Source: Aromatoleum toluvorans (GTDB taxonomy: Bacteria > Pseudomonadota > Gammaproteobacteria > Burkholderiales > Rhodocyclaceae). From it: a stretch of DNA of 50,167 bases. The position numbers were made by a program, and so were the translations under genes. The DNA lies in assembly GCF_012910905.1 (NCBI RefSeq), contig NZ_WTVN01000034.1:1-50167 (forward strand). The letters are read 5' to 3'. How positions within the stretch are numbered: the stretch's first letter is position 1; every line of letters starts with the position of its first letter. Below, piece by piece: positions 9,597 to 24,792 of this stretch. Below the pieces are notes generated by a model. The model was not told where the DNA came from. It made no database searches and was given only the letters and a program-made list of their open reading frames with translations.

Positions 9597-9621
9597 GAGA
9601 GTCTCCTTGGGATGATTCGGT

Positions 9622-9641
9622 ATGAGAATGAACACTCACTC
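9622..9641 (-). promoter_or_regulatory. TetR-type operator O1 before the 8778-9596 crotonase
   Basis: On the minus strand it reads GAGTGAGTGTTCATTCTCAT, matching the consensus GAnTGAATnnTCGTTCAnTC at most positions; it is the weakest of seven copies. It lies 26-45 bases before the crotonase ATG and touches the stop codon of the badH-like gene. Confidence 0.45.
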
Positions 9642-10386
9642 AGCCAGCGAGCGTGAGACCGCCGCTGACGCTGATGACCTGGCCGGTGATGAAGCTCGCG
9701 CGCTCGCTGGCGAAGAACAGCACGGCGTCGGCGAGCTCGGACGGCTTGGCGAGGCGGCGCATCGGCGTGGCCTTGACGAAGGCTTCCTGGTGCTTTTCCG
9801 GCACCGCGCGCAGCAGCGGCGTGTCGGTCGGGCCGGGGCACACGCAGTTCACGTTGATGTTGTAGCGCGCGACCTCGCGGGCGAGCGACTTGGTGAAGGC
9901 GATCGCGCCGCCCTTGGCGCCCGAATACACGGTCTCGCCCAGGCTGCCGACGCGGCCGGCGTCGCTCGACACGGTGACGATCTTGCCCGAGCCGCGCTCG
10001 ATCATCTGCTGCAGGAAGGCCTGCGACACCGCGACCGGCCCGAGCAGGTTGAGGTCGATGACCTTGCGCCAGAAGTCGGGCGTGTTCTCCATGAAGGGCT
10101 GGATTTTGCCCCAGCCGGCGACGTTGGCGACGATGTCGACCTGGCCATGGCGACGATAGGCTTCGTCGCGGAAGGCGTGGATGGAGTCGATGTCGGTGAC
10201 GTCGAGGCGGACGAAGTCGACGTCCAGGCGCTGCTCGGCGAGCAGGCCGGCCGCGGCCGCGCCCTTGGCCGCATCGATGTCGCCGATCACGACCTTCGCG
10301 CCCGCCCGCGCCAGCGTCTCCGCCGTCGCATACCCGATCCCCGATGCGCCGCCCGTGACGACGGCCGTTTTGCCTTGCAGGTTCAT
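9640..10386 (-). CDS. badH: SDR dehydrogenase, 2-hydroxycyclohexanecarboxyl-CoA dehydrogenase (BadH-like)
   Basis: A 248-residue short-chain dehydrogenase: nucleotide-binding TGGASGIG at residues 11-18, the family's NNAG replaced by NVAG, and catalytic Ser then YSGAK. The stretches SSDAGRVGSLGETVY, NCVCPGPTDTPLL and TGQVISVSGGLTLAG strongly recall Rhodopseudomonas palustris BadH as I remember it. BadH oxidises 2-hydroxycyclohexanecarboxyl-CoA to the 2-keto ester with NAD. The ATG at 10386 is chosen because GAGGAGACAGAC directly precedes it; an ATG at 10404 would put that site inside the gene. A TTGACT promoter and a TetR-type operator lie about 105 bases upstream. Confidence 0.75.
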   Translation of the reverse strand: MNLQGKTAVVTGGASGIGYATAETLARAGAKVVIGDIDAAKGAAAAGLLAEQRLDVDFVRLDVTDIDSIHAFRDEAYRRHGQVDIVANVAGWGKIQPFMENTPDFWRKVIDLNLLGPVAVSQAFLQQMIERGSGKIVTVSSDAGRVGSLGETVYSGAKGGAIAFTKSLAREVARYNINVNCVCPGPTDTPLLRAVPEKHQEAFVKATPMRRLAKPSELADAVLFFASERASFITGQVISVSGGLTLAG

Positions 10387-10490
10387 GTCTGTCTCCTCAT
10401 TCACCAGTCATTCGAGCCTGGGACGTCTGCGCGTGCGCCGCCCCGCTTCCCGTTTGCTGCAGCGTTCCGTGTCCGGTTCCGCCAGCAGTT

Positions 10491-10525
10491 GAATGAATGA
10501 TCGTTCAGTCAATTCATCAAGTCAA
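10491..10525 (-). promoter_or_regulatory. badH promoter with TetR-type operator O2
   Basis: The palindrome GAATGAATGATCGTTCAGTC (10491-10510, plus strand) overlaps a minus-strand promoter: -35 TTGACT at 10520-10525, 17 bases, and a poor -10 GATCAT at 10497-10502. The same layout (TTGACT, 17 bases, operator over the -10) occurs before the SDR at 17015. Repressor binding would block RNA polymerase. Confidence 0.65.
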
Positions 10526-10694
10526 CCCCTTGGCGCGAATTTCAGCGCAATGGGTCAGGCACCTGTCCTGCGCGATGATGGGTCCGGCAGCCCGATACGA
10601 TTCGGGTTTAACCCTTTGGCGGCTTGCTGATGCCCGTCGACGGGCTCAGGAAGAATGGGTATGGACGACGCCGTATAAATGCCAATCGCACTAA

Positions 10695-10724
10695 TGCACA
10701 CGGCCGGAAATCCGGCCGTGTGCA
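10695..10724. terminator. Perfect 14-bp hairpin downstream of the ligase operon
   Basis: TGCACACGGCCGGA at 10695-10708 and TCCGGCCGTGTGCA at 10711-10724 are perfect reverse complements with two bases between them. It lies 122 bases beyond the ligase stop. No long T-tract follows on the minus strand, so it may terminate inefficiently or be a protein-binding or cruciform site. Confidence 0.5.
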
Positions 10725-10743
10725 ACTGAACGATCAATCAGTT
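10724..10743. promoter_or_regulatory. TetR-type operator-like palindrome O3
   Basis: AACTGAACGATCAATCAGTT; with flanking bases its arms GCAACTGA (10722-10729) and TCAGTTGC (10738-10745) are perfect. The minus-strand form matches O6 at 15 of 20 positions. It lies well upstream of the badH promoter, where it could allow looping between two bound dimers, or serve an unseen plus-strand promoter. Confidence 0.5.
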
Positions 10744-10765
10744 GCGTGAAGCGGGTAAGGAGGAC

Positions 10766-10815
10766 GGCTGGCGTAGGGCGGATGAGCCGCAGGCGTTATC
10801 CGCCCTACGCCAGCC
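10766..10815. repeat. GTAGGGCGG-family REP palindrome, single unit (R1)
   Basis: GGCTGGCGTAGGGCGGAT (10766-10783) and its perfect reverse complement (10798-10815) enclose a 14-base loop. It lies 32 bases after the ligase stop codon. It belongs to the same family as the composite elements at 26785, 27701, 33864, 42403 and 43824. Confidence 0.8.
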
Positions 10816-10846
10816 GCCACCATCGGGCTGGGTCGTGACACGCCCC

Positions 10847-12421
10847 CTACAGCCGCCCCGCCTTGAGCAGCTCGCGCAGGCGGAACTTCTGGATCTTGCC
10901 GGTCGCGGTGCGCGGCAGCTCGTCGACGAAGCGCACCGTGCGCGGGCATTTGTAGATCGAGAGGTTCGCCATCAGGGTGTCCTGCACCTGCGTGGACAGG
11001 CGCGAGTGGCTCGCCGCCGGATCCTTCGCCACGGCGACGAGCACGAGGCGCGTGAGGCCGTCCTCCTGCGGCACGCCGACGACGACCGCCTCGGCGATGC
11101 CTTGTGCGCTCATCGCGCAGGACTCGATCTCGGACGGGCTCACCCACTGGCCGGAGATCTTCAGCATGTCGTCGGCGCGGCCGTTGTGATACCAGTAGCC
11201 GTCGGCATCGAAGCTGAACATGTCGCCGGGGAAGTACCAGCCGTCGCGCAGGGACTTCGCCGTCTGTTCGGGCAGCTTCCAGTAGCCGCTGAACTGCGAC
11301 GGCGTGCGGATCGCGATCTGCCCGGGGACGCCGGCTTCGGTGATGTCCGCGCCGCTGTCGTCGACCAGGCGCACCTCGGCCCACGGCACCGGCTTGCCGC
11401 AGGAGCCGGGGCGCTGGGCGTGGCCTTCATTGACGAGGAAGAGGAAGATCGTCTCGGAGGCGCCGATGCCGTCGATGATGGGCTTGCCGGTCGCCTCCAG
11501 CCAGGACTGGTACAGCGTCTCGGGCAGCTTCTCGCCGGCCGACAGGAAGTGGCGCACGTTGCGGAAGCCTTCGCTCGCGTCCGCCCCTTCGCGCAGCAGG
11601 TTGCGGTACATCACCGGCGTGCTGAAGAACAGCGTCGGCCGGTAGCGCTCGACCACATCGACGATGCGCGCCGGGTCCGGCCAGCCGGGGGCGACGATGA
11701 CCGTCGCGCCACAGCGCAGCCCGCCCATCAGCGAATGGCCCAGCGCCCAACCGAAGAACATCTTCGAGGTCGCGAAGATGCGGTCGCCCGGGCGCACGCC
11801 GAAGTAGTCGGTCTCCATGCGGTCGGCGATCAGCACGCAGGCGTGCGTGTGCATCACCGCCTTCGGCCGCCCCGTCGTGCCCGAGGAATACACCCAGAAG
11901 GCGACGTCGTCGGGCGCGGCCGGGGTCGATGCCAGGGTGTCGGGCTGCCCGGCGAGGAAGTCTTCGAGCGGCACCCCGCCCGCCCGCGGTGCGGTGCCGC
12001 GCACGACGAGCTGCGGCGGGTCGGCGAGCTCGGCGGCGATCTCCTGGTAGAGGTGGGCGAATTCCGCGTCCACGAACAGCAGGCGGCAGGCGCTGTCCTC
12101 GATCACGTAGCGCACGTCGCGCGGCGCGAGCCGCACGTTGAGCGCCACCGCGACGGCGCCGATGCGCATCGCGCCGAGGTAGCCGGCGGCCATCTCGGGC
12201 GAATCGTCCATCAGGAACAGCACGCGCTCGCCGCGCCCGACGCCGTGCGCCTTCATCGCGTTGCCGCAGCGATTGACCAGCGCGTCGAGCTCGCCGTAGG
12301 TGACCGAACGGCCGCCGCCGACGATCGCCGGCTGCTCGGCGAGGCCCTGCGCGAGCGGGCGGCCGATGATCTCGTCGGCGGCGTTCATCGCGCCGTGGTA
12401 CGGAGTGTGGTCGAAACTCAT
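10847..12421 (-). CDS. Acyl-CoA ligase of the benzoate-CoA ligase family; candidate alicyclic acid-CoA ligase (AliA role)
   Basis: A 524-residue AMP-forming ligase. The P-loop reads VYSSGTTGRPKAVMH, the adenylate motif GIGASETIFLF, and the C-terminal catalytic lysine lies in PRTATGKIQKF. It belongs to the benzoate/4-hydroxybenzoate-CoA ligase family but is distinct from the BclA protein at 33963. It follows the TRAP substrate-binding gene by 11 bases, so it most likely activates the acid imported by that transporter. With the acyl-CoA dehydrogenase and BadH-like genes nearby, cyclohexanecarboxylate or a related acid is the best guess. A benzoate or aminobenzoate ligase remains possible. Confidence 0.78.
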   Translation of the reverse strand: MSFDHTPYHGAMNAADEIIGRPLAQGLAEQPAIVGGGRSVTYGELDALVNRCGNAMKAHGVGRGERVLFLMDDSPEMAAGYLGAMRIGAVAVALNVRLAPRDVRYVIEDSACRLLFVDAEFAHLYQEIAAELADPPQLVVRGTAPRAGGVPLEDFLAGQPDTLASTPAAPDDVAFWVYSSGTTGRPKAVMHTHACVLIADRMETDYFGVRPGDRIFATSKMFFGWALGHSLMGGLRCGATVIVAPGWPDPARIVDVVERYRPTLFFSTPVMYRNLLREGADASEGFRNVRHFLSAGEKLPETLYQSWLEATGKPIIDGIGASETIFLFLVNEGHAQRPGSCGKPVPWAEVRLVDDSGADITEAGVPGQIAIRTPSQFSGYWKLPEQTAKSLRDGWYFPGDMFSFDADGYWYHNGRADDMLKISGQWVSPSEIESCAMSAQGIAEAVVVGVPQEDGLTRLVLVAVAKDPAASHSRLSTQVQDTLMANLSIYKCPRTVRFVDELPRTATGKIQKFRLRELLKAGRL

Positions 12422-12432
12422 GGCGGCTCCGC

Positions 12433-13464
12433 TCAGTTGGCGAGCAGCGCGCGGGCTTCGGCGAGCAGCTTCTGCCCGTCGTAGCCCTTGGCGCTGACTT
12501 CCTTGACCCAGTCGGCCGCGACCGACTCGGACGCCTTCTGCCACTTGCCCACTTCGGCCGCGGGCACGGTGTAGAACGTGTTCTTGCGGTCGATGCCCGC
12601 CTGCCGTCCGGTCAGGGTCGCCTCGTTCCACACCTTGCCCGCCCACGCCGACACCTCCTGGCCGCTGTTGGCGTCGATGACTTTCTTGAGGTCGGGCGGC
12701 AGGCTGTCGTATTTCGCCGGGTTCATCGCCAGCACGAAAGTCGAGGTCGACATCAGCGGCATCGCGGGATCGGTTTCGCTGTGGTATTTCACGATCTCCT
12801 GCGCCTTGATCGTCGGCACGACTTCCCACGGCATCATCGCGCCGTCGATCACTCCCTTGGCGAGGCTGTCGGAGACCATCGTCATCGGCATCGGCACCGG
12901 CGTGGCGCCGAGGGCGGAAAGCATGCGGGTCGCCATGCGCGTCGGAGCGCGCAGCTTCATGCCGCCGAGGTCGGCCATGGTCTTCACCTGCTTGTCCGTC
13001 GTGTGCAGCGTCATGCCGGGGATGACGTGGAACACCAGCGGGCGCACGCCCTTGTATTCCGCCGCGGCGTTCTTCGTCGCGTAGATCCACAGCGCGCGGC
13101 TCGACTTCTCGCCGGAAGTGCCCATGAAAGGCAGCTCGAAAGCTTCCGAGACGAGGAAGCGGCCGGCCTGGTAGCCGGGCACCGTCCACACGATGTCGGC
13201 GACGCCATCCTTGGCCTGGTCGAAGAGCTGCGCCGGCGTGCCGCCCATCTGCATCGCCGGGTAGATCTGGCACTTCAGGCGCCCGGCCGACTCGGCAGCG
13301 ACCTTCGCGCACCACGGTTCGATGAATTTCACCTGTGCGTTCGAGTTCGGCGGCAGGAAGTGGTGCACGCGCAGCGTCACGACCTTGTCCGACTGGGCCT
13401 GGGCGGCAGCGGCCACGAGCAGCATCGCCGTCAGCAGCGGCTTGAGCAGTGTTCGGGTTTTCAT
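12433..13464 (-). CDS. dctP: TRAP transporter substrate-binding protein (DctP family)
   Basis: A 343-residue protein with a cleavable signal peptide ending near AAAAQAQS and a DctP fold (LRVHHFLPPNS, MATRMLSALGATPVPMPM). The usual ligand-binding Arg is likely within KLRAPTRM. AGAGGAGACGCG precedes the ATG. It is the third gene of a Q-M-P-ligase operon; the order suggests it captures an organic acid in the periplasm and feeds it to the ligase downstream. Substrate inferred from context only. Confidence 0.9.
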   Translation of the reverse strand: MKTRTLLKPLLTAMLLVAAAAQAQSDKVVTLRVHHFLPPNSNAQVKFIEPWCAKVAAESAGRLKCQIYPAMQMGGTPAQLFDQAKDGVADIVWTVPGYQAGRFLVSEAFELPFMGTSGEKSSRALWIYATKNAAAEYKGVRPLVFHVIPGMTLHTTDKQVKTMADLGGMKLRAPTRMATRMLSALGATPVPMPMTMVSDSLAKGVIDGAMMPWEVVPTIKAQEIVKYHSETDPAMPLMSTSTFVLAMNPAKYDSLPPDLKKVIDANSGQEVSAWAGKVWNEATLTGRQAGIDRKNTFYTVPAAEVGKWQKASESVAADWVKEVSAKGYDGQKLLAEARALLAN

Positions 13465-13503
13465 CGCGTCTCCTCTTTGGAATGGATGGCCGGCCCCGGC
13501 TTG

Positions 13504-14835
13504 TCAGCCGCCGAAGGTCCGGACCAGGTACAGCGAGATGGCGGGGAAGAACAGCAGCAGCGTGATGCGCATCATGTCGGAGGCGAGGAAGGGCATGACT
13601 CCGCGGAAAGTGTCGGTGAGCGGCACGTCCTTCGCGGCCTTGTTGATGATGTAGATGTTCATGCCGACCGGCGGATGCACGAGGCCGATCTCGACCACCA
13701 TCAGCACCAGAATGCCGAACCAGATCGACTTCTCCTCGGGCGCCAGCCCCCAGAACTCCAGCCCCATGATCACCGGGTAGAAGATGGGGATGGTCAGCAG
13801 GATCATGGCCATCGCGTCCATGACGCAGCCGAGGAAGACGTAGATCAGCAGGATCGCGGTGAGCACCAGCAACGGCGGCAGGCCGCTGTCCCGAACCCAG
13901 TTCGCGAGCTCGACCGGCATCTGCGTGAGCGCGAGCCCGGTGTTGAGCATGTCGGCGCCGAGCAGCACGAGGAAGATCATCGCCGTGGCCTCGGCCGCGC
14001 CGAGCACGCTTTCGCGGACGCCCTCGGCGCGCATGCCGCCAGTGACTACCGCGAGGATGCCGCAGGCCGCGGCGCCGATCGATGCCGCCTCGGTGGGGTT
14101 GGCCCAGCCGCCGTAGATGCCGACGATGACGACGAGGAAGATCAGCGCCACCGGCGTGACGTTGGCGATCGAGCGCAGCTTCTCCGCCAGCGGCACATGC
14201 GGGCCCGCCGGGCCGGCTTCGGGCTTGAGCGTGACGATGATGCGGATCACCAGCATGTAGCCGAGCATCGCGATCAGGCCCGGCAGCACCGCCGCCATGA
14301 AGAGCTTGCCGATCGACTCCTGCGTGAGCACCGCGTAGATCACCAGCGGCACCGAGGGCGGGATCAGGATGCCGAGCGTGCCACCCGCCGCCAGCGCCCC
14401 GGTCGACAGAGCGCCGGAGTAGTTGTAGCGCTTCAATTCCGGCAGCGCGACCTGTCCCATCGTCGCCGCCGTCGCAAGCGAGGAGCCGCAGATCGCGCCG
14501 AAGCCCGCGCAGGCGCCGGTGGAGGCGATCGCGACGCCGCCGCGCCAGTGCCCGACGAGCGAGCTCACGCAGCGGAACAGCGCGCGCGACAGGCCGCCGT
14601 GGGTCGCGAACTGGCCCATCAGCAGGAACATCGGGATGACGGCCAGATCGTAGTTGGAGAGCCGCGCGTAGGCGAGGTTCTTCAGCATGTTGAGGAAGGG
14701 GGGGAGCTCGCCGCCCATCATCGTCAGGTAGCCGCCTGCGCCGACGACGAACATGGTGATGCCGATATGCACGCGCAGCACCAGCATCGCCAGCAGGATC
14801 GCGAACATCGTCGCGCCGATCGCAATGCCGCTCAT
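13504..14835 (-). CDS. dctM: TRAP transporter large permease (DctM family)
   Basis: A 443-residue membrane protein with roughly a dozen hydrophobic segments spread over the chain and typical DctM motifs (LPELKRYNYSGALSTGALAA, then GTLGILIPPSVPLVIYA). Its ATG overlaps the dctQ stop by four bases (ATGA), showing translational coupling. It carries the sodium-coupled substrate pathway in the inner membrane. Confidence 0.92.
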   Translation of the reverse strand: MSGIAIGATMFAILLAMLVLRVHIGITMFVVGAGGYLTMMGGELPPFLNMLKNLAYARLSNYDLAVIPMFLLMGQFATHGGLSRALFRCVSSLVGHWRGGVAIASTGACAGFGAICGSSLATAATMGQVALPELKRYNYSGALSTGALAAGGTLGILIPPSVPLVIYAVLTQESIGKLFMAAVLPGLIAMLGYMLVIRIIVTLKPEAGPAGPHVPLAEKLRSIANVTPVALIFLVVIVGIYGGWANPTEAASIGAAACGILAVVTGGMRAEGVRESVLGAAEATAMIFLVLLGADMLNTGLALTQMPVELANWVRDSGLPPLLVLTAILLIYVFLGCVMDAMAMILLTIPIFYPVIMGLEFWGLAPEEKSIWFGILVLMVVEIGLVHPPVGMNIYIINKAAKDVPLTDTFRGVMPFLASDMMRITLLLFFPAISLYLVRTFGG

Positions 14836-15482
14836 TTCGCACCTCCGAGCACGACGCCGAAGCGGCGCCCCGCGATGTAAAGACTGGTCGCCGTGAACAA
14901 CAGGAAACCCGGCACGATCAAGGCGATCGCCACCCAGCCCGGCCAGCCGAGCATCACCGATGCCTCGCCCGAGTCGTAGGACGACACCGCCGCCGCGCCG
15001 GTGCGCCACGCAACCAGCAGCGCGACCGCCCCCATCAGCAGCGCCGCGACGCCGTCGAGCAGCGCGCGCACGCGCAGCGGCAGCCAGTGCGTGAAGAAGT
15101 CCACGCGCACGTGGCCGTCGACCATCTGGCAGTAGGAGAAGAAAGTCGCGGACGCGACCGCCGCGCCCATCTGCAGGACCTCGAAATCGCCCGGCACCGG
15201 CAGCGCGAACAGCTTGCGCCCGACGATCGAGACCAGCGACATGCCGATCATGAGCATGAACACCGTCCCGCCCATCAGCGCCGACACCCGGCTCGCCGCG
15301 TACAGGCGCCGGCCCCACGGCCCGTGCGGCAGGGCCTCGGGGTGCGCGACGTGTTCGATCGAACCGGGTTCGAGTTGGACGCCGGCGTCCTCCTCCCCGT
15401 CTCCGCTCCCGGTGCCACAGACCTTCGCCGGCCGCAGGCCCGCGGCGGCGGCCGCGTCCAGGCTCACTACGCTTGCATGCAT
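14832..15482 (-). CDS. dctQ: TRAP transporter small permease (DctQ family)
   Basis: A 216-residue protein with four membrane segments (about residues 68-88, 103-118, 140-160 and 180-205). An unusually long, hydrophilic N-terminal extension of about 55 residues precedes them. GGAGGAGACGGAAC precedes the ATG at 15482. An internal start cannot be excluded given the extension. First gene of the TRAP/ligase operon, with a TetR-type palindrome immediately upstream. Confidence 0.85.
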   Translation of the reverse strand: MHASVVSLDAAAAAGLRPAKVCGTGSGDGEEDAGVQLEPGSIEHVAHPEALPHGPWGRRLYAASRVSALMGGTVFMLMIGMSLVSIVGRKLFALPVPGDFEVLQMGAAVASATFFSYCQMVDGHVRVDFFTHWLPLRVRALLDGVAALLMGAVALLVAWRTGAAAVSSYDSGEASVMLGWPGWVAIALIVPGFLLFTATSLYIAGRRFGVVLGGAK

Positions 15483-15506
15483 GTTCCGTCTCCTCCTCGC
15501 TCCGTT

Positions 15507-15526
15507 CTATAGATGAACGTTCATTC
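15507..15526. promoter_or_regulatory. TetR-type operator O4 before the TRAP/ligase operon
   Basis: CTATAGATGAACGTTCATTC; the right half-site is a perfect GAATGAACG form and the core ATGAACGTTCAT (15513-15524) is a perfect palindrome. A TATAGA on the minus strand (15505-15510) could be the -10 box. It lies 25-44 bases before the dctQ ATG. Confidence 0.6.
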
Positions 15527-15596
15527 AGTAGACATGCGGAGAAAATGATGGGCGCGACAGGCGCCGCAAGACGCCTGCCGCGAACCCTGCCCAGGC

Positions 15597-16775
<1,179 letters not shown>

Positions 16776-16902
16776 TTTCGCGTCTCCTCTCGGGGCGGTA
16801 CGCCGGCGGCGCCCACCCTCCTCCTTTGGATATCGTCCTGTGCGGCGCCCGCTCGGGCAGGTCTGTGCCGCTTGTTTCTATCGGCCCATCGGCCACCGAC
16901 GA

Positions 16903-16963
16903 CCGTTCGGGCTGAGCCTGTCGAAGCCCTGCCAATGCCCTTCGACAGGCTCAGGGCGAACGG
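16903..16963. repeat. REP-like palindrome (CTGTCGAAG family), copy 2
   Basis: Two 24-base arms (16903-16926 and 16940-16963) are complementary apart from two mismatches, with a 13-base loop. It shares GAGCCTGTCGAAG/CTTCGACAGGCTC with 8521-8580. It lies 52 bases after the SDR stop codon and may terminate that transcript. Confidence 0.75.
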
Positions 16964-17014
16964 GGTAATGCATTCACATACAGGATCGATGATTTTTCTT
17001 CGACCCTATCCGCC

Positions 17015-17806
17015 TCACATCACTTCACCGCCCGACACCGACACCGCCTGCCCCGTGATCGCCTCGGAGCCCGGCAGGCACAGCCACAGCACCGCGTTGG
17101 CAACCTCTTCCGGGCGCACGAGGCGGCCCTGCGGGTTGTGCTTCGCCAGTTCGGCGAGCGCCTCGGCCTCGCTGCGGCCGGTCTTCTCGCGGATGTTGGC
17201 GACCGCGTCGCGCACGATGTCGGTGTCGGTGTAGCCGGGACACACGGCGTTCACGGTGACGTGCTTGTGCGCCAGTTCCAGCGCCAGCGCGCGCGTCATT
17301 CCGATGACGCCATGCTTGGCGGCGCAGTAGGCCGAGACGTAGGGATAGCCCTTCTCGCCCGCGGTGCTGGCGACGTTGATGATGCGGCCCCAGCCGGCGG
17401 CGAGCATGCCGGGCAGCGCGGCGCGGGTGGCGAGGTAGGTGCCGGTGAGATTCACGTCCAGCATCTGCTGCCACAGCGCCGGGTCGGTACGCAGGAAGGG
17501 GGCGCTGCCGGCCTGGCCGGCGTTGTTCACCAGCACCGCGACCGGGCCGAGCGTGCGCGCAGCGGCGGCAAAAGCCGCCTCGACCGAATCCGCTTTCGCG
17601 ACATCGACCGCCTCGCAATGCACTTCGCAGCCGGTGCTGCGCAGCGCGGCAGCGCGCTCTTCGAGCTGCGCGCGGGTGCGGCCCATCAGCGTCAGGCGCG
17701 CACCTTGCGCGGCGGCGGCCGCGGCGATCGCGGCGCCGATGCCGCGGCCGCCGCCGGTGATCACCACGTGTTTGCCTGCGAGTGCGCGATCCAGATCTGC
17801 CGCCAT
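17015..17806 (-). CDS. SDR-family oxidoreductase, probable 3-hydroxyacyl-CoA dehydrogenase
   Basis: A 263-residue short-chain dehydrogenase with TGGGRGIG (residues 17-24), NNAG, and catalytic Ser (NVAST) and YCAAK. The C-terminal part (CPGYTDTDIVRDAV, HNPQGRLVRPEEVANAVLWL) resembles, from memory, SDRs in 2-aminobenzoyl-CoA and salicylyl-CoA clusters. The ATG at 17806 is chosen because GGAGG lies five bases upstream. It is probably monocistronic, with its own TTGACT promoter and TetR-type operator. Likely role: oxidation of a hydroxy intermediate in the alicyclic route. Exact substrate unknown. Confidence 0.75.
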   Translation of the reverse strand: MAADLDRALAGKHVVITGGGRGIGAAIAAAAAAQGARLTLMGRTRAQLEERAAALRSTGCEVHCEAVDVAKADSVEAAFAAAARTLGPVAVLVNNAGQAGSAPFLRTDPALWQQMLDVNLTGTYLATRAALPGMLAAGWGRIINVASTAGEKGYPYVSAYCAAKHGVIGMTRALALELAHKHVTVNAVCPGYTDTDIVRDAVANIREKTGRSEAEALAELAKHNPQGRLVRPEEVANAVLWLCLPGSEAITGQAVSVSGGEVM

Positions 17807-17883
17807 CACATCCTCCGCTTTCGCTTGTCCATCCCGGCCGAGACCGCCGCGCACCGGGATCCGGATACGCCCTGCAATTCGGT

Positions 17884-17918
17884 GAATGAATAGTCGTTCA
17901 TTTTACTCGTGCAGTCAA
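17884..17918 (-). promoter_or_regulatory. SDR promoter with TetR-type operator O5
   Basis: GAATGAATAGTCGTTCATTT (17884-17903) overlaps a minus-strand promoter: -35 TTGACT at 17913-17918, 17 bases, -10 GACTAT at 17890-17895. The geometry is identical to the badH promoter at 10491-10525. The operator centre is about 88 bases before the SDR start. Confidence 0.68.
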
Positions 17919-17981
17919 CGGGAATCTTTTCTTGCGACGTTTTCCCGTTGTGGGGCGCCGGATCGCCCCCTCGTCGGCAGC

Positions 17982-19316
17982 TTACGCCGCCCGTTGCGGC
18001 GCGCCAGACCCAGGGCCGGCCAGGGTTGCCGCGTGCGCCTGGAAGCGCCGGAGCTCCTCGCGCGGCACGAGCGAGCCGCCCGTCAACCAGATCACCTGCG
18101 TCGCGGCGCGCAGGTCGAGCCCATGCTCGCGCACGTAGGCCCGGCCTTCGGCCGAATCGCGCAGCCAGCCCGGCCCGGCGACCCCGGCCGCCGCGGAGGG
18201 CTCGACTTCCACGCCCAGCGATGTCTTGAGCGCGAGCAGGTGAAGGTAGAGCTGGTCGTCGGGGACGGTGAACACGCCGGCGAGTTGCGACGCCATCAGG
18301 GGGCTGACCAGATGGGAAGCCTGGCCCACGGCGAGGCCATCGGCATCGGTGCGGTTGTCGAGGCCGATGTCGTAGACGGAGACGGGGGCGTCGCCCCCCG
18401 AAGCGAGCTGCACCAGCATGCACGGCGCGGCGACGGGCTCGGCGAAGAAGCAATGCACATGATCGCCGAACAGCGCCTTGAGACCGTAGGTGATGCCGCC
18501 GGGTGCGCCGCCGACGCCGCAGGGGATGTAGACGAAAAGCGGATGCACGGCGTCCACGACGCGGCCGGCTGCGGCAAGCTGGCGGGCCAGATGACGTGCC
18601 GCGGCGGCGTAGCCGAAAAAGAGCAGCGCGGAGGATTCGTCATCGACGAAATGGCTGCGCGACGAAGCCTTCGCCTCTTCCCGTCCCGCCGCCACGGCTG
18701 CGGCGTAGTCGCCGACGTGTTCCACGACGCGCACGCCGCGTTGGCGCAGGCGGTCCTTCTTCCACGCCTTGGCATCCGCGGACATATGCACCACCGCGTC
18801 GAAGCCGAGCGCCGCCGCCATCACCCCGATGCTCAGGCCGAGGTTGCCGGTGCTGCCGACCGACACCGTGTAGCGCGAGAACAGCGCGCGTGCCGCCGCG
18901 GTCGCGAGAATGCGGGGATCGGCGCCGGCGGCGAGGAGGCCATGTTCGGTCGCGACGGCCTCGGCGAAGGCGAGCACTTCGTGAAAGCCGCCGCGCGCCT
19001 TGATGGAGCCGGCGACCGGCAACTCGTCGTCGCGCTTGACGAACCACGCGCCCCCGGCGCCATCGTCGCCGGCCAACGCCTCGCGCAGCGCAGCGGCGGG
19101 CGTCAGTTGCGATTCGACGTGCCCGTTGCTCGATGCGAGTTCCGGAAACAGCGTCGCCATGAGCGGTTCAAAGCGCGCAAGACGCGCCTCCGCCGCCGCG
19201 ATCAGCTCCGTCGACGGGGCGGAGGCCGGCAGGGCCTGCCCCAGCCGAGGGTTCAGCCACAGCAGCGGTTGGCGGGATTGAAGCTGCGCCAATAGCGCCG
19301 GAGAGAGAGCAGTCAT
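17982..19316 (-). CDS. dsdA: D-serine ammonia-lyase (D-serine dehydratase)
   Basis: A 444-residue PLP enzyme, normal DsdA length. The PLP-binding Lys lies in GSIKARGGFHEVL, the glycine-rich phosphate loop is VGSTGNLGLSIG, and IPCGVGGAPGGITYGLK is typical of DsdA. It turns D-serine into pyruvate and ammonia. The start at 19316 has GAGG nine bases upstream; longer N-terminal extensions lack a binding site. It has no obvious link to aromatic metabolism, and no DsdC or DsdX gene lies next to it. Confidence 0.88.
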   Translation of the reverse strand: MTALSPALLAQLQSRQPLLWLNPRLGQALPASAPSTELIAAAEARLARFEPLMATLFPELASSNGHVESQLTPAAALREALAGDDGAGGAWFVKRDDELPVAGSIKARGGFHEVLAFAEAVATEHGLLAAGADPRILATAAARALFSRYTVSVGSTGNLGLSIGVMAAALGFDAVVHMSADAKAWKKDRLRQRGVRVVEHVGDYAAAVAAGREEAKASSRSHFVDDESSALLFFGYAAAARHLARQLAAAGRVVDAVHPLFVYIPCGVGGAPGGITYGLKALFGDHVHCFFAEPVAAPCMLVQLASGGDAPVSVYDIGLDNRTDADGLAVGQASHLVSPLMASQLAGVFTVPDDQLYLHLLALKTSLGVEVEPSAAAGVAGPGWLRDSAEGRAYVREHGLDLRAATQVIWLTGGSLVPREELRRFQAHAATLAGPGSGAPQRAA

Positions 19317-19463
19317 GTTGCCGATCCTCGCAGGGGATTCCCGAATGGACGGCAATCTTAAGCCTGCTTGGCAAGCCGGCAAATTGCTGAAATCAGTCTC
19401 CGTTCGCCCCGGGATTGTCGAAGGGGGCATTTTCTCAGAGGCGGGAGGCGGATCCCGCGGCGC

Positions 19464-19507
19464 CCGCCCCTTGCCGACGCCGCAGGTCCCGCGCCCGCAA
19501 GGGGCGG
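19464..19507 (-). terminator. Hairpin after the bzd/GNAT operon
   Basis: CCGCCCCTTGC (19464-19474) and GCAAGGGGCGG (19497-19507) form a perfect 11-bp stem with a 22-base loop, 18 bases beyond the GNAT stop. There is no T-tract, so the terminator function is inferred from position. Confidence 0.5.
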
Positions 19508-19524
19508 CACTGCTACGCGAGCCC

Positions 19525-19977
19525 TCAGGCGATCGCGTATTCCAGGTTGACCCGCTTGGACGGGGCGAAGCGCTGGCGCGAGAAGAATCTTGCCAGCGCG
19601 AAGTCGTCCCAGTTCACCGAGGTGTACACCTTCTTCACGCCCGCCACCTTCATGTTCGTCATGAACTGGTCGAGCAGTTCGCTGCCGACGCCGTGGCCCT
19701 GCAGCTCGGGGTCGACGCCGATCGTGTCGATGGTCGCCGAGGTCTCGGGAATGCCGAACTCGCCGAAATAGATGTCGCCCATGACGAAACCGGCGACGTG
19801 GCCGTCGATCTCGCACACCAGCGACACGTTGATGTTGTGCTTCGGGTTGAGGATCGCCTCGATCTTGCGCGCGTAGTACTCGCGCCGGTTCTGCTTCGAG
19901 GCCACCTGGTCGATGCGGACGATCGCATCCAGGTCGTCCTTCCTGAGCACCCGCATTACCCGCTTCTGGTTCGCCAT
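19525..19977 (-). CDS. GNAT-family N-acetyltransferase linked to benzoyl-CoA reductase genes
   Basis: A 150-residue GNAT protein; the acetyl-CoA pyrophosphate loop reads GVDPELQGHGVGSELL (Q/RxxGxG/A motif). CGAGGAGGAAGACGC precedes the ATG at 19977. It lies 102 bases after bzdQ on the same strand. R. palustris carries GNAT genes tied to benzoate metabolism (BadL, acting on aminobenzoates; KatA/Pat, acting on the catalytic lysine of aryl-CoA ligases). It could have either job, or acetylate a BCR-related protein. Function not resolved. Confidence 0.75.
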   Translation of the reverse strand: MANQKRVMRVLRKDDLDAIVRIDQVASKQNRREYYARKIEAILNPKHNINVSLVCEIDGHVAGFVMGDIYFGEFGIPETSATIDTIGVDPELQGHGVGSELLDQFMTNMKVAGVKKVYTSVNWDDFALARFFSRQRFAPSKRVNLEYAIA

Positions 19978-20079
19978 GCGTCTTCCTCCTCGAATGGGCG
20001 CGCCCGGGCCCGGGCGCGCGTCAATGCTTGTCATCATGGACGGCGTTTTCCGCTCCGCGCCGGTGGACCAGCCCGTCGC

Positions 20080-20997
20080 TCAGGCCTTGCCGCCCTGCTT
20101 CTGCATCAGCGTGTAGCCGAACAGCGCGGCACCCAGCGCGCCGGCGATCTGGCTGTCGATCTTGGTCTCGAGCTGCTTGATGCCCAGCAGGCGCTCGATG
20201 CGTTTCACGACGCCCGGGTTCTTCGCGATGCCGCCGGTGATGAAGAAGCCCTCTTCCACACCGATCCGCTCCAGCAGGCTCACCACGCGCTCGGCCATCG
20301 CCTGGCAGTAAGCCGCGATCACCTTGTTCTTCGTGTAGCCGGCCTTCAGGAGCGCCAGCGCCTCGGACTTCGCGAACACCACGCAGATCGACGACACGGC
20401 TTCCGGCTCCTCGTCGACGTCGAAGGAACGCGGGCCCAGCTCGGCGATGGGGATCTGCATCAGGTCGGAGATGACTTCCATGCCGCGGCCGGTACCGGCG
20501 GCGCACTTGTCGTTCATCAGGAAGTTCGTGACCTTGCCCTTGTCGTCGCAGTGGATGGCCTTGCAGTCCTGGCCGCCCATGTCGAGGATGGTGCGGACCT
20601 TGTTGCCGCCCATGTAGTTCGCGCCGCGGGCGTGGCACGCGATCTCGGTGATCGCCTTGTGGGCGAAGGGCACGTTCACCCGGCCGTAGCCGGTGCCGAC
20701 GACATAGTTGATGTCCTCGAGCTTCATGCCGATCTTGTCCATGATGCCGGCGAGCGCGTTCTTGGCCGAATCCGGCGAGTTGTTGCCGGTGCGCATGCTG
20801 TTGTAGCCATACAGCTCGCCGTCACACACCAGCACCGCCTGCGAGGACACCGAGCCGACGTCGATGCCGCAAGTGATGATCTTCGCGTCCTTCCAGTTCT
20901 TCGACTCGTCGTACCAGGTGTTTTCCTGCCAGCGCCAGAATTCCTTCTTCTCGGGGGCGGCGGTGGCGAGCTTGCTTTCATCGACTCCAGCGTTCAC
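20080..20997 (-). CDS. bzdQ: Benzoyl-CoA reductase ATPase subunit BzdQ (BcrA/BadF-like)
   Basis: A 305-residue ASKHA-fold activator subunit. It has the phosphate loop GIDVGSVSSQAVLV and DMGGQDCKAI, and the Cys ligands for the [4Fe-4S] cluster shared between the two ATPase subunits in NDKCAAGTG and SSICVVFAKSE. Its length fits Azoarcus BzdQ (about 300 residues) rather than the larger Thauera BcrA. The start is GTG at 20997 with AAGGAG upstream. With BzdP it hydrolyses ATP to push electrons to the NO subunits, which reduce benzoyl-CoA to a cyclohexadiene. Confidence 0.88.
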   Translation of the reverse strand: MNAGVDESKLATAAPEKKEFWRWQENTWYDESKNWKDAKIITCGIDVGSVSSQAVLVCDGELYGYNSMRTGNNSPDSAKNALAGIMDKIGMKLEDINYVVGTGYGRVNVPFAHKAITEIACHARGANYMGGNKVRTILDMGGQDCKAIHCDDKGKVTNFLMNDKCAAGTGRGMEVISDLMQIPIAELGPRSFDVDEEPEAVSSICVVFAKSEALALLKAGYTKNKVIAAYCQAMAERVVSLLERIGVEEGFFITGGIAKNPGVVKRIERLLGIKQLETKIDSQIAGALGAALFGYTLMQKQGGKA

Positions 20998-21028
20998 TTG
21001 ATCTCTCCTTGATTCATGTCCGGTCGGT

Positions 21029-21832
21029 TCAGTGCAGGCGCTCGGCCGCGATCAGCGCGCAGCCCAGCGCGCTGGCGAATTCGGGCAGCTCGGGCAGCAG
21101 CACCTCGTCGACCTCCATCGCGTTCTTCAGCGACGCGACAAAGCCCGGGTTATGGCCCATGCCGCCGATCAGCACGACCTGACCGTCGATGCCGACGCGC
21201 CGCACCATCGCGCACACGCGGCTTGCGACCGCATCCAGCACGGCCTTGGCGATGTCTTCCTTGGGCGTCGAGGAGTGGATCAGCGACACCACCTCGGACT
21301 CCGCGAACACCGTGCATTGCGCGTTCATCGGAATGCTCTTGTCGGACTTCAGGCTGGCTTCGCCGAACTCCTTGAGCGAGAGCTGCAGCGCGCGGCTCAT
21401 CGCCTCGGCGAAGGAACCGGCGCCGGCCGCGCACTTCTCGTTGCCGGCGAAGTCGATGGCCTTGCCCTCCGCGTCGGTCTTGATGCCGCGGCCTTCCTCG
21501 GCACCGACGTCCACCACCGTGCGGGCCTGCGGGTACATGTACACCGCACCGCGCGCGCCGGCGGTCATCTCGGTGATGCCCTCGGTGGCGAAGGCGACCT
21601 GGCCGCGGCCGGCGCCGGTGGCGAACACCGACTTCACGTCGCCGCGCGCCACGCCCGCCGCCTTCAGCGCATCGTCGTAGGCCTGTTCGGCGGCCTGGTC
21701 CGCGTCGAGGTCGCCCGGCAGCATCAGGTGCGCCTGCTTCACGACCATCAGCGGCTTGCCTTCCATGCTGACCTCTTCGAGCAGCACGACCTTGACGCTG
21801 CGCGACCCCATGTCGATTCCTGCGGTGATCAT
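21029..21832 (-). CDS. bzdP: Benzoyl-CoA reductase ATPase subunit BzdP (BcrD/BadG-like)
   Basis: A 267-residue ASKHA ATPase, the partner of BzdQ. It has GIDMGSRSVKVVLL at the start, the cluster Cys residues in GNEKCAAGAG and NAQCTVFAESE, and VLIGGMGHNPGF near the end. The ATG at 21832 has AGGACAGGAAG just upstream; a longer reading lacks a site. It lies 31 bases before bzdQ. The gap before it (to bzdO) is 276 bases and holds a palindromic repeat, unusual inside a multi-subunit operon. Confidence 0.87.
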   Translation of the reverse strand: MITAGIDMGSRSVKVVLLEEVSMEGKPLMVVKQAHLMLPGDLDADQAAEQAYDDALKAAGVARGDVKSVFATGAGRGQVAFATEGITEMTAGARGAVYMYPQARTVVDVGAEEGRGIKTDAEGKAIDFAGNEKCAAGAGSFAEAMSRALQLSLKEFGEASLKSDKSIPMNAQCTVFAESEVVSLIHSSTPKEDIAKAVLDAVASRVCAMVRRVGIDGQVVLIGGMGHNPGFVASLKNAMEVDEVLLPELPEFASALGCALIAAERLH

Positions 21833-21948
21833 CTTCCTGTCCTCATCTCGTTGGAATTGCTTGTGCATGTTGTACGGGCGCGCCGCTCTCTGGGGGGTTG
21901 GGTGTGCCGCGAGCACTCGGGTGATAGGTTGAGCGTTGCACGGCTTGC

Positions 21949-22044
21949 TCCCTCCCCTTCAAGGGGAGGGCCGGGGTGGGGATGGGTTGCGCGGACCTCA
22001 CCGAAACCCATCCCCCTCCTAACCTCCCCCTTGAAGGGGGAGGA
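21949..22044. repeat. CTCCCCTTCAAGGGGAG palindromic element, copy 1 (inside the bzd operon)
   Basis: A roughly 96-base element. At each end is a short palindrome (CTCCCCTTCAAGGGGAG at 21952-21968 and CTCCCCCTTGAAGGGGGAG at 22024-22042). Inside these, GGGATGGGTT and AACCCATCCCC form inner arms. The whole folds as one large inverted repeat. A second copy lies at 32477-32579. It sits between bzdO and bzdP and could cause differential expression of the subunits. Confidence 0.75.
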
Positions 22045-22108
22045 ACAAGGTGCCCCGCCTGACTCGTGAGTTCGATTGCCGCGCCGCTCTCTGCTGTTGT
22101 TGGGCGGA

Positions 22109-23419
22109 TCAGGCCGCCAGCTTGCGCAGGCCCAGCTGCTCCATGAAGGCATCGACGCGCGCCTGGGTGCGCACTTCGTCGAACTCGCGCTCGTCGCCCA
22201 TGTTTCCCTCGTAGGTCATGATCGGGATGCCGGCCTTGGCCATCGCCTGGCGGTTTTCCATGATGCCGACCGAGAGGCCTTCGCAGCCGCGGTTGAGGTG
22301 CATCATGCAGCCGTCGACCCCCCAGTCGCGTGCGATGTCGAGCATCATCCGGGACTTCACCGAGGGGTCGAAGAACTGCTGCCACAGCGGCTTCGACAGG
22401 TTCCAGTCGGCATACAGGCGCAGCGCCGTGTCGCGGTCGTTCAGCTCGATGCCCTTCTCCCACGGCACGGTGCGCGCGCCCCAGGAACCGTCTTCCTTGT
22501 ACTCCCAGGTACCTTCGAGGCCGAAGGTGTAGAGCGAGCCGATCGACACCGCACCGTAGCTCTCCAGGTAGCGGAAGATCTTCAGGAAGGGCCACGGCGG
22601 CTGCGTGTCGGACATCAGGCGGCAGCGCTCGTTGGCCACCGCGGCGATGCCGCGCGCGACGCGGTCCTTCACCTCGTCGTACAGCTCGTCCATGAAGTCC
22701 GCGCACCACTGCGAGGACTTGTGCAGGATGCACAGCACATACAACGAGTACATCGTCTTCTCGTCGAGCGGCGCGGGCCGCGCCTTCTGCAGCTCGCAGA
22801 TCTGCGCCCAGCGGCTGGTCGAGCGCATCTCGTTCCTGATCGCGCGGATCAGCAGCTCGTCGTCGCACTTGCGCCCGGTGGCCTTCTCGACGAACTCGAT
22901 CGAGTCGTGCAGCTGGCTGGTGACGTAGTCGAGGCGCTCGGGCGTGAGGTCCTTGTAGGCGCCCACCGAGACGTCGACGTAGAAGTCGGGGATGTTCTTC
23001 ACGCGCGACACATGCTGGTACCACTTCGCATGCGAGCAGCAGATCTGCGTCTGGTAGATGAAGTCCGAGGTCGGCCACTTGCCGCCGTAGAAGTACTCGT
23101 CCAGATGCATGCTGCCCCAGTAGATGCGCATGTAGGAGCACATGTCGCGCGCGAAGCCGTAGGACTCGGCGGCGTCGAGGCAGCGCTGCGTGAACTTCTT
23201 GTCGAGCGACACGCCGGCCGAGTACGGCTCGCCGGTCAGCGGATAGACGTCGTCGCCGAGCGAGGTCGGGATCGCGTCGAAGGACCAGCCCGCAGCGGAC
23301 CAGCGGATGCCGCCGTTGTCCTTGGCGCGGGCGTAGTTGTGGTAGTACTGCTCGCGCAGCTGCTTGGCCTTGCCCCACAGCTTGAGCGGCTCGGTCGGGT
23401 AGATCGCCTTCGTATCCAT
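22109..23419 (-). CDS. bzdO: Benzoyl-CoA reductase substrate-side subunit BzdO (BcrB/BadE-like)
   Basis: A 436-residue protein of the HgdB/2-hydroxyacyl-CoA dehydratase fold. Cys-containing segments such as [27 protein letters not shown] and [11 protein letters not shown] would supply cluster and substrate-site ligands. Its size fits BzdO/BcrB. CAGGAGACAAGAC precedes the ATG, 19 bases after bzdN. With BzdN it forms the module that binds benzoyl-CoA and performs the two-electron ring reduction. Expected to be oxygen-sensitive and used under denitrifying conditions. Confidence 0.87.
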
Positions 23420-23438
23420 GTCTTGTCTCCTGTCGGGC

Positions 23439-24578
23439 TCAGAACAGCTCTTCTTCGCTCAGCGTCTCGAGCATCGCCTCGATGCGGATGCGGAACGGGC
23501 CGATCGGGTTGGTGATGTCGAATTCGAGGAACAGCGTCGGGATGCCGTTGGCCTCGAGGTGACGCTTGAGGTCCGGGTAATCGCCTTCGTGCGGGTCGCA
23601 GAACTTCTGCTGCAGGAACACGGCCGCCTGCACCTTGTATTCCTTCGCGAGGTTCAGCACGTGGTCGAAGCGCGTGTGCGCCGGGTAGTCCTTGGTCGGG
23701 CAGGCCGGGCGGTCGCAGTAGCGTTCGGCAATCGCCTTGACGACGTCGGCCTCGGGCTTCGAGGCGTTCCAGAAGTAGCGCGTGCCCGAGCACTGGTCGT
23801 CGATGACGATCGTGGCTCCGACCGACTCGACCATCGCCATGAAGGCGACGTCGTCGTTCTCCGAGCCGATCGTCATGAAGCGCGCACCCGTCGGGCGCGT
23901 GACTTTCCGGCTGGGCAGCGCCGCCAGCACCTTGCGGAGCATCTCGTTGTGCTCGCGCTTGTCGATGAACTGCGCGGTGATCGACGCGTACAGCGCCTCG
24001 ACGCCGGTGACCTTGGGATTTTCGTCCTTGCGGTAGTCGAACAGCTCGCGCAGCAGGCGGCGGTTCTCGTCCATCACCACGAGCGCGTCGCGCAGCATGT
24101 CGTCGGTGAGTTCCTTGCCGGTCAGCGTCTGCAGGAACACGCGGAAGCGCTGGATCTCGGCGTAGTGCGCCTTGCGCGAGTGCGGCGACTGCACGTCATT
24201 GGGCATCGCCACGTAGTAGTCCCATTGCACCGTCGGCACGTTCTGGCGCCACGAGCTGTAGGCCTGACGGTACTGGATGCAGGACTGCGTCAGCGTGACG
24301 CCTTCCGCGTAGTCGAAGCGGCCCAGCAGGCCCTGCGCCAGCGAGTCGCGGCAGAACGGGCAGAACATGCCGAAGATGTGCGGCTCGGTGACGTTCTGCG
24401 GCTCGTGCGCGCCGAGCACACGCACCGGCAGCATGCCGGCCGCGATCAGCAGCTCCTCGGGCGTGTAGGTGCACATCGTCGCGACGACCTGGCCGCCGGT
24501 GCGCGCCTTCCACGCGCGGGCGTAGTCGTGGCGCTTCTCGTACCACTCCTTGAACTGGTCAAACAATCCGTCGTTCAT
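23439..24578 (-). CDS. bzdN: Benzoyl-CoA reductase substrate-side subunit BzdN (BcrC/BadD-like)
   Basis: A 379-residue protein of the same fold as BzdO. Diagnostic segments are [34 protein letters not shown] and [16 protein letters not shown], whose Cys residues would coordinate an FeS cluster. The ATG at 24578 has AAGGAGACGGATTC upstream. It heads the minus-strand operon bzdN-O-P-Q-GNAT. No ferredoxin gene (bzdM) is in or next to this operon. Its promoter region carries two TetR-type palindromes and one TGCA-N6-TGCA site. Confidence 0.87.
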
Positions 24579-24705
24579 GAATCCGTCTCCTTGTGATTGC
24601 CCCACCCGCCGGGCGATCCGCCCTGTCGGGGAGCCTGCCGGCCCAGTCGTCCCGGTCCCCTGTCCGTTCCCGTCTCCACTCCAGTCTGTTTGATGTCCAT
24701 CAACT

Positions 24706-24725
24706 GACTGAATGTTCGTTCACTC
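24706..24725 (-). promoter_or_regulatory. TetR-type operator O6 at the bzdN start site
   Basis: GACTGAATGTTCGTTCACTC, near-perfect match to the family consensus. It overlaps the downstream part of the predicted -10 box (24722-24727) and the expected transcription start, a repressing position. Confidence 0.68.
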
Positions 24726-24750
24726 TACATCCGGAGTTTGGCGAAAGCAA
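24722..24750 (-). promoter_or_regulatory. Predicted bzdN promoter
   Basis: On the minus strand: -35 TTGCTT (24745-24750), 17 bases, -10 TAGAGT (24722-24727). It is about 140 bases before the bzdN ATG and lies exactly between operators O6 and O7. The boxes are imperfect, so activation may be needed; an Fnr/AcpR-type site was not found by eye. Confidence 0.45.
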
Positions 24751-24755
24751 GCGCA

Positions 24756-24775
24756 GAATGAACAATTATTCATTC
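24756..24775 (-). promoter_or_regulatory. TetR-type operator O7 upstream of the bzdN -35 box
   Basis: GAATGAACAATTATTCATTC has perfect 7-base arms (GAATGAA/TTCATTC). Its centre is 50 bases from that of O6, so two bound dimers would flank the promoter from both sides. Confidence 0.68.
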
Positions 24776-24778
24776 GAC

Positions 24779-24792
24779 TGCAATGGAGTGCA
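24779..24792. promoter_or_regulatory. BoxR/BzdR-type TGCA-N6-TGCA site next to the bzdN promoter
   Basis: TGCAATGGAGTGCA. The same TGCA-N6-TGCA spacing occurs twice in the boxR promoter (38103-38116 and 38190-38203). From memory, BzdR-family regulators recognise TGCA repeats. It lies three bases from O7. A single short site can arise by chance, so confidence is moderate. Confidence 0.45.

What the first reader, a model, noticed from the sequence alone, without database searches (positions are those of the whole stretch)
9622..24775. A 20-bp TetR-type palindrome marks the promoters of the alicyclic and bzd genes
Seven sites fit the half-site GAnTGAAYGW arranged as a 20-bp palindrome: 9622, 10491, 10724, 15507, 17884, 24706 and 24756. 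All are intergenic apart from a three-base overlap of one site with a stop codon. All lie on the minus-strand catabolic side near the starts of badH-like, crotonase, TRAP/ligase, SDR and bzdN units. I saw none before the box, Liv or bclA genes. Two of them share a geometry in which the operator covers the -10 box of a TTGACT promoter. The consensus resembles the FadR/YsiA and acyl-CoA-sensing TetR operators. The TetR gene at 6931-7614 is the obvious binder.
Basis: partly seen in the sequence, partly recalled or inferred. Interest (0 to 1): 0.82.

Follow-up and report, generated by a model that had tools for sequence, protein, structure and literature searches.

The report
Repressor sites of an aromatic-acid cluster
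Seven copies of one DNA palindrome mark where a TetR-family switch protein very probably sits to keep a 3-hydroxybenzoate-type degradation gene cluster off until its substrate appears; the motif is real, but as far as I recall this kind of switch has already been described in a related strain.

Summary
A matrix trained only on other genera ranks the seven sites as the window's seven best. The operator is better read as an 18-bp palindrome, TGAATGA-N4-TCATTCA, so two coordinates shift. Genome-wide, all 5 sites of the 20-bp form within two mismatches lie in the window, control 0. In the genus, 15 of 17 genomes have the TetR orthologue and the sites; the two without it have none; 57 of 66 distinct sites lie near tetR or bzdN.

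The pathway label changes: the ligase is 3-hydroxybenzoate-CoA ligase HbdA (1027.9 bits, cut-off 1000), true badH is elsewhere, and this bzdNOPQ set is a second copy without BzdR beside it. Among 50 bzdN copies, 19 of 22 without a neighbouring BzdR have the operator, against 1 weak case in 28 with it.

I recall, but could not open, a 2024 paper on HbdR of Aromatoleum sp. CIB with this operator: so a new member of a known kind. Less expected: the same TetR and operator accompany alicyclic-type gene sets in genomes that mostly lack BzdN.

The parts
   Evidence: 21.8 bits with an independent matrix; equivalent site in 6 of 8 Aromatoleum loci L015-L022
10494..10511 (.). main operator upstream of the SDR-hydratase-hydratase-tetR unit, over the -10 position of TTGACT-N17-GATCAT (minus strand); overlapping register at 10490
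   Evidence: 34.1 bits; promoter; present in 8 of 8 Aromatoleum loci
10723..10740 (.). secondary, weakest operator in the same intergenic region
   Evidence: 12.6 bits, below the largest shuffle; a comparable second site in 5 of 8 Aromatoleum loci
   Evidence: 25.6 bits; equivalent site in 6 of the 7 Aromatoleum loci in which both acad and dctQ were found
17883..17900 (.). operator upstream of the second SDR and the acyl-CoA dehydrogenase, over the -10 position of TTGACT-N17-GACTAT (minus strand)
   Evidence: 25.9 bits; promoter; equivalent site in L016, and the identical 18-mer in G233 about 10.2 kb from its tetR; the other L015-L022 loci show none there, most ending in or near this gene
24705..24722 (.). 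proximal operator of the second bzdN promoter, starting in the -10 box of TTGCTT-N17-TAGAGT (minus strand)
   Evidence: 25.9 bits; aligned in the promoters of all 19 examined bzdN copies that have an operator and no BzdR beside them
24755..24772 (.). distal operator, exactly 50 bp upstream of the proximal one
   Evidence: 23.9 bits; same 50-bp spacing in 10 of those 19 copies
6931..7614 (-). TetR-family regulator, proposed HbdR orthologue
   Evidence: TetR_N and TetR_C_24; 45-row alignment of relatives; fold search
10850..12421 (-). 3-hydroxybenzoate-CoA ligase HbdA
   Evidence: NF053567, 1027.9 bits, cut-off 1000
12433..15482 (-). TRAP transporter (DctP, DctM, DctQ)
7717..10404 (-). two enoyl-CoA hydratase-family genes and an SDR, same strand as and upstream of tetR
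15597..17854 (-). acyl-CoA dehydrogenase and second SDR
20080..24605 (-). second benzoyl-CoA-reductase-type operon bzdQ, P, O, N (proposed hbdNOPQ); bzdN probably starts at the ATG at 24578
   Evidence: BzdN, BzdO and BzdQ above their cut-offs, the P gene only above a general activase-domain cut-off; other copy on C51
24690..24703 (.). FNR/AcpR-type box TTGAT-N4-ATCAA just downstream of the proximal operator
   Evidence: the only perfect one in the window; exact in 14 and relaxed in 1 of the 15 Aromatoleum copies L122-L136
24779..24792 (.). TGCA-N6-TGCA box (BzdR/BoxR type) upstream of the distal operator
   Evidence: present in 10 of 10 promoters that have the distal operator; four such boxes in the whole window, so weak on its own

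Best explanation
The seven palindromes are operators of the TetR-family repressor encoded at 6931-7614, an HbdR-type protein. A dimer binds TGAATGA-N4-TCATTCA at or next to the -10 region and keeps four units off: SDR-hydratase-hydratase-tetR (which would make it autoregulated), the TRAP transporter and ligase unit, the second SDR-acyl-CoA dehydrogenase unit, and a second benzoyl-CoA-reductase-type operon (bzdNOPQ paralogue). When the substrate is taken up and activated by the HbdA ligase, its CoA thioester, most likely 3-hydroxybenzoyl-CoA, binds the repressor and releases it. Shown by computation: the sites, their conservation, their concentration in this cluster, their co-occurrence with the TetR, the absence of BzdR next to this bzd copy, and the ligase family. 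Inferred: transcription units, binding, repression, effector.
For: An independent matrix ranks the seven sites first. Leave-one-locus-out, 46 of 55 non-Aromatoleum proteobacterial TetR loci have a site of at least 18 bits, against 1 of 55 in shuffles, best of three each. In the genus, 15 of 15 genomes with the orthologue (85% or more identical) have sites and 0 of 2 without it; 57 of 66 distinct sites lie within 12 kb of tetR or bzdN, and the 9 others are about the control level of 12 matches. Among 50 bzdN copies, 19 of 22 without a neighbouring BzdR have the operator, against 1 of 28 (a weak 8.9-bit hit, L160) with it. HbdA above cut-off. Operators overlap -10 positions. Best fold matches include AibR with isovaleryl-CoA and operator DNA, and Bacillus FadR, also with stearoyl-CoA. 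EbN1 is assigned a TRAP system for 3-hydroxybenzoate uptake under anoxic conditions (PMC9765128, passages).
Against: No binding data. Six of the seven sites carry at least one mismatch to TGAMTGA-N4-TCAKTCA, and 10723 is marginal. Nine of 55 proteobacterial TetR loci (L024, L030, L042, L050, L054, L056, L058, L068, L073) and 6 of 17 actinobacterial ones show no site of 18 bits; several of these contigs are short or end near the gene. Three bzdN copies (L140, L150, L170) have neither operator nor BzdR in the stretch held. The FNR box lies downstream of the predicted start, which does not fit activation at -41.5. TetR folds that bind other ligands (DarR, RutR) also appear in the fold list. Genomes of one genus are not independent, so the Fisher p overstates the certainty.
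Confidence: 0.87

Rival explanations
1. The operator belongs to an alicyclic (cyclohexanecarboxylate) regulator that senses cyclohexanecarboxyl-CoA.
For: Of 11 ligase-type genes scanned beside the module outside Aromatoleum, 5 (L029, L034, L061, L064, L069) are cyclohexanecarboxylate-CoA-ligase-like, 605 to 674 bits, all below the cut-off of 792.3, and these loci carry the operator. The dehydrogenase at 15597 has sub-cut-off cyclohexanecarbonyl-CoA dehydrogenase hits.
Against: Here the ligase is HbdA above cut-off, a BadH above cut-off is on C51, and the known cyclohexanecarboxylate regulator of Aromatoleum sp. CIB is the MarR protein BadR (PMC9795900).
Confidence: 0.08
2. The second bzd operon is controlled mainly by BzdR or BoxR in trans through the TGCA-N6-TGCA box, and the TetR sites only modulate it.
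For: The TGCA box is present in 10 of 10 Aromatoleum promoters with the distal operator. BoxR and BzdR are reported to cross-regulate box and bzd genes (PMC6449761, passages).
Against: The box is absent in L132-L138, L148 and L149, while the proximal TetR operator is in all 19. The PN promoter of BzdR-linked copies is described with three BzdR operator regions (PMC6678401, passages and section 3.1).
Confidence: 0.06
3. Another TetR of the genome binds these sites.
For: Seven other places in this genome match the TetR query at E below 0.001; one of them, on C56, has a similar palindrome nearby.
Against: The next best match is 36% identical over 88 residues, and sites and orthologue are missing together in two genomes of the genus.
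Confidence: 0.03

Closest known systems
HbdR of Aromatoleum sp. CIB (recalled: Fernandez-Arevalo, Fuchs, Boll and Diaz, Microbiological Research 2024; not found or not held)
   Same: As recalled: TetR repressor of the hbd genes, operator ATGAATGAN4TCATTCAT, effectors 3-hydroxybenzoyl-CoA and benzoyl-CoA, AcpR involvement. The consensus found here from relatives is TGAATGA-N4-TCATTCA.
   Different: As recalled, three catabolic promoters; here seven sites in four intergenic regions plus one at the SDR-hydratase junction, among them one before the TRAP genes and a pair 50 bp apart before bzdN. I cannot check whether that paper reports them.
FadR (YsiA) of Bacillus subtilis
   Same: NCBIfam match along residues 29-211, fold match (3whb, 3whc), and an operator recalled as TGAATGAMTANTCATTCA
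   Different: 64.0 bits against a cut-off of 200; regulates fatty-acid degradation
BzdR at the PN promoter (PMC6678401, passages and section 3.1)
   Same: Represses a bzdNOPQ-type operon in Azoarcus/Aromatoleum and responds to an aryl-CoA
   Different: XRE-type protein with a shikimate-kinase-like domain and TGCA repeats; linked to the other bzd copy here
MbdR (PMC4424350, passages)
   Same: TetR repressor of an anaerobic aromatic cluster, aryl-CoA effector
   Different: Operator ATACN10GTAT, not enriched in the window
BadR (PMC9795900, abstract, passages, one section)
   Same: Represses a ring-degradation cluster and responds to a CoA thioester
   Different: MarR family, CAAN4TTG; CAAT-N2-ATTG not enriched here

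Membership tests
HbdR regulon (as recalled) | TetR-family regulator gene in the cluster | tested here: met
   TetR_N, TetR_C_24
HbdR regulon (as recalled) | operator TGAATGA-N4-TCATTCA in the catabolic promoters | tested here: met
   10723 only marginally
HbdR regulon (as recalled) | 3-hydroxybenzoate-CoA ligase in the regulated cluster | tested here: met
   HbdA above cut-off
HbdR regulon (as recalled) | 3-hydroxybenzoyl-CoA or benzoyl-CoA as effector | not testable with these tools
   needs binding assays
HbdR regulon (as recalled) | AcpR/FNR activation | tested here: inconclusive
   conserved TTGAT-N4-ATCAA box, but downstream of the predicted start
Bacillus FadR | score above the curated family cut-off | tested here: not met
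   64.0 of 200
bad-ali cluster with BadR | BadH above cut-off among the regulated genes | tested here: not met
   249.7 of 431.2; BadH above cut-off on C51
bad-ali cluster with BadR | BadR operator CAAT-N2-ATTG enriched in the window | tested here: not met
   2 matches at up to 1 mismatch, 5.4 expected
MbdR regulon | ATACN10GTAT operators | tested here: not met
   1 match at up to 1 mismatch, 1.5 expected

The most novel reading that the evidence does not exclude
The TetR-operator pair is older and wider than 3-hydroxybenzoate degradation. It is a general switch for CoA-bound ring acids across Beta-, Alpha- and Gammaproteobacteria and some Actinobacteria, originally paired with an SDR-hydratase-dehydrogenase module and an AliA-like ligase. 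In the Aromatoleum lineage a second bzdNOPQ copy came under it and has no BzdR of its own, so one genome holds two closely related ring reductases under two unrelated repressors.
Probability: 0.45. Interest if true: 0.55.

Novelty: new member of a known kind. Interest (0 to 1): 0.4.

Why it matters
It fixes the identity of the cluster (3-hydroxybenzoate type rather than alicyclic) and gives an operator matrix with which the regulator and its targets can be sought in unannotated genomes. It also offers a case of paralogous ring-reductase operons split between two unrelated repressors, testable with two promoter fusions. The spread of the pair over distant bacteria would let the effector range be mapped across naturally diverged regulators.

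Tried and rejected
Alicyclic cluster name: dropped. MbdR and BadR operators: not enriched. A 12-bp palindrome found in 42 of 55 loci in the unsupervised repeat search lies in a conserved coding stretch of the PRK08258-type hydratase gene. A class II promoter with the FNR box at -41.5 at the second bzdN: I saw no -10 box at the right distance in the aligned promoters, read by eye. Two high matrix scores near other TetR genes of this genome: one is AT-rich (L121), one a different palindrome (L119). An idea that two ORFs upstream in L045 were reductase subunits: they are periplasmic binding proteins.

Rows dropped before counts: tblastn hits covering under half the query or under 60% identity; training sites at locus ends, overlapping registers and identical sequences; overlapping registers within 4 bp merged. 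One search kept the best 80 of 164 relatives. One search covered 37 genomes chosen from the 55 loci L023-L077. One search examined 50 of the 87 bzdN places.

Papers: PMC9795900 (abstract, passages, section 21), PMC6678401 (passages, section 3.1), and PMC4424350, PMC6449761, PMC5343134, PMC9765128, PMC9516798 (passages); none in full; other papers only in search listings. Searches that failed to find the HbdR paper. A search with the string TGAATGA found no paper holding it, so the Bacillus FadR operator is recalled.
Full report
What was checked. The seven sites are present and far above chance (8 matches against 0.17 in shuffles). To limit circularity I built a matrix from 53 distinct sites in loci outside the genus (L023-L077), loci found by the TetR protein and not by the motif. 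The training sites were, however, picked with an 18-bp consensus that I had seen in those same loci. That matrix ranks the seven window sites first, 34.1 to 12.6 bits, with the next at 3.6. An unsupervised count of inverted repeats in the same loci finds TGAATG with gap 6 and GAATGA with gap 4 in 39 and 38 of 55 loci; the one repeat that scored higher, 42, is a coding stretch. The operator is therefore TGAATGA-N4-TCATTCA. The site at 10723 is weak (below the largest of 100 shuffles) and rests mainly on a comparable second site in 5 of 8 other Aromatoleum loci.

Concentration in the cluster. In the window's genome (4.80 Mb) the 20-bp form with up to two mismatches is found only in the window, 5 sites, control 0. 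With three mismatches 8 of 14 are in the window, control 8, so looser hits outside are chance-like. Over 17 genomes of the genus the 18-bp form with up to one mismatch gives 75 forward matches against 12 for the reversed control, or 66 distinct sites, 57 of them within 12 kb of tetR or bzdN. Two genomes have no site; one (G344) has no TetR match at E 1e-40 and the other (G213) only a 50% relative. The same 15 genomes that have the orthologue have two bzdN copies; G213 has one and G344 none at E 1e-60.

What the cluster is. The ligase at 10850-12421 passes the HbdA equivalog cut-off (1027.9 of 1000), though not by much. TRAP genes, an acyl-CoA dehydrogenase, two SDRs, two hydratase-family genes and bzdNOPQ complete the set. 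In A. aromaticum EbN1 a TRAP system is assigned to anaerobic 3-hydroxybenzoate uptake, and the ring is reduced before a modified beta-oxidation (PMC9765128, passages). The genome has another bzdN on C51, 88% identical, with a BzdR-like gene just upstream, 51% identical to the window's BoxR-like protein; no operator is found in the 400 bases upstream of that copy (L152). Across 50 bzdN copies examined, of 87 places, an operator is found in 19 of 22 copies without a neighbouring BzdR and in 1 of 28 with it, that one (L160) at 8.9 bits; three copies (L140, L150, L170) have neither. Absence of BzdR was judged only within the stretch held, about 1.5 kb for L122-L151 and 2.5 kb for L152-L171.

Promoter anatomy. 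At 10494 and 17883 a TTGACT box stands 17 bases before a -10 position inside the operator. At the second bzdN, TTGCTT-N17-TAGAGT ends in the proximal operator, and a second operator lies exactly 50 bp upstream in 10 of the 19 operator-bearing, BzdR-free copies. Just downstream of the proximal operator the Aromatoleum promoters L122-L136 carry an FNR-type box, exact in 14 and relaxed in 1 of 15; upstream of the distal operator 10 of 10 carry TGCA-N6-TGCA. Relaxed FNR boxes also occur upstream of most BzdR-linked Aromatoleum copies, as expected from PN (PMC6678401). At the second bzdN the box is not at -41.5 from the predicted start, and I have no explanation for it.

The regulator. The protein has TetR_N and TetR_C_24. 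Its predicted model (mean pLDDT 88.6) matches AibR with isovaleryl-CoA, PfmR, Bacillus FadR and KstR2 among its first hits; DarR and RutR, which bind other ligands, are also in the list, so the fold points to acyl-CoA without proving it. Nineteen positions are invariant over 45 relatives down to 30% identity, ten of them beyond the DNA-binding domain. It is not a FadR by the family cut-off (64.0 of 200).

Beyond the genus. Of 55 other proteobacterial TetR loci, 46 have a site of at least 18 bits when the locus is left out of training, against 1 of 55 shuffled; of 17 actinobacterial loci 11 do, eight of them Nocardia. Close relatives remain in the training set, so this is not fully independent. 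Only 4 of the 55 show bzd genes within the DNA held (L025, L027, L029, L040). Of 37 of these genomes searched, 5 have BzdN above the cut-off; many are metagenome bins, and L027, which carries bzdO, shows no BzdN there, so absence is uncertain. Of 11 ligase-type genes scanned in such loci, 5 are cyclohexanecarboxylate-CoA-ligase-like (L029, L034, L061, L064, L069; 605 to 674 of 792.3), 3 HbdA-like (L027, L040, L070; 933, 954 and 651 of 1000), one 2,3-dihydroxybenzoate-type (L045; 557 of 724) and two reached no family at the threshold used (L037, L084). This is the ground for the novel reading.

Known or new. From memory, not from any call, HbdR of Aromatoleum sp. CIB was described in 2024 with operator ATGAATGAN4TCATTCAT. 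The paper was not found or not held. If the recollection is right, the core of the finding is known and this window holds another member. The extra sites, the exclusion between this operator and BzdR, and the spread of the pair beyond bzd clusters are what these calls add; I have not established that they are unpublished.

Noticed in passing
G000 contig C51, 23132-25632 (locus L152): A second bzdN, 88% identical to the window copy, with a BzdR-like gene just upstream; 15 of 17 genus genomes have two bzdN copies.
   Followed up: yes
24690-24703: FNR-type box TTGAT-N4-ATCAA lies downstream of the predicted start of the second bzdN promoter and is conserved in the genus; a class II activation geometry does not fit.
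   Followed up: partly
24779-24792: TGCA-N6-TGCA box upstream of the distal operator, conserved in 10 promoters, hinting at cross-control by BzdR or BoxR.
   Followed up: partly
17982-20037: A D-serine-ammonia-lyase-like gene and a GNAT acetyltransferase sit between the second SDR and bzdQ; their link to the pathway is unclear.
   Followed up: no
6525-6908: PemK/MazF-like ORF next to tetR on the opposite strand, also beside tetR in L019 (94% identical).
   Followed up: no
locus L119, G000 contig C56 near 11323: Another TetR-like gene of this genome has a palindrome nearby, TTACTGACCAGTCAGTTA, of similar layout.
   Followed up: partly
locus L029, 11610-13265: A UbiD-family decarboxylase gene near the TetR-linked bzdN in a Sterolibacterium bin.
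   Followed up: no
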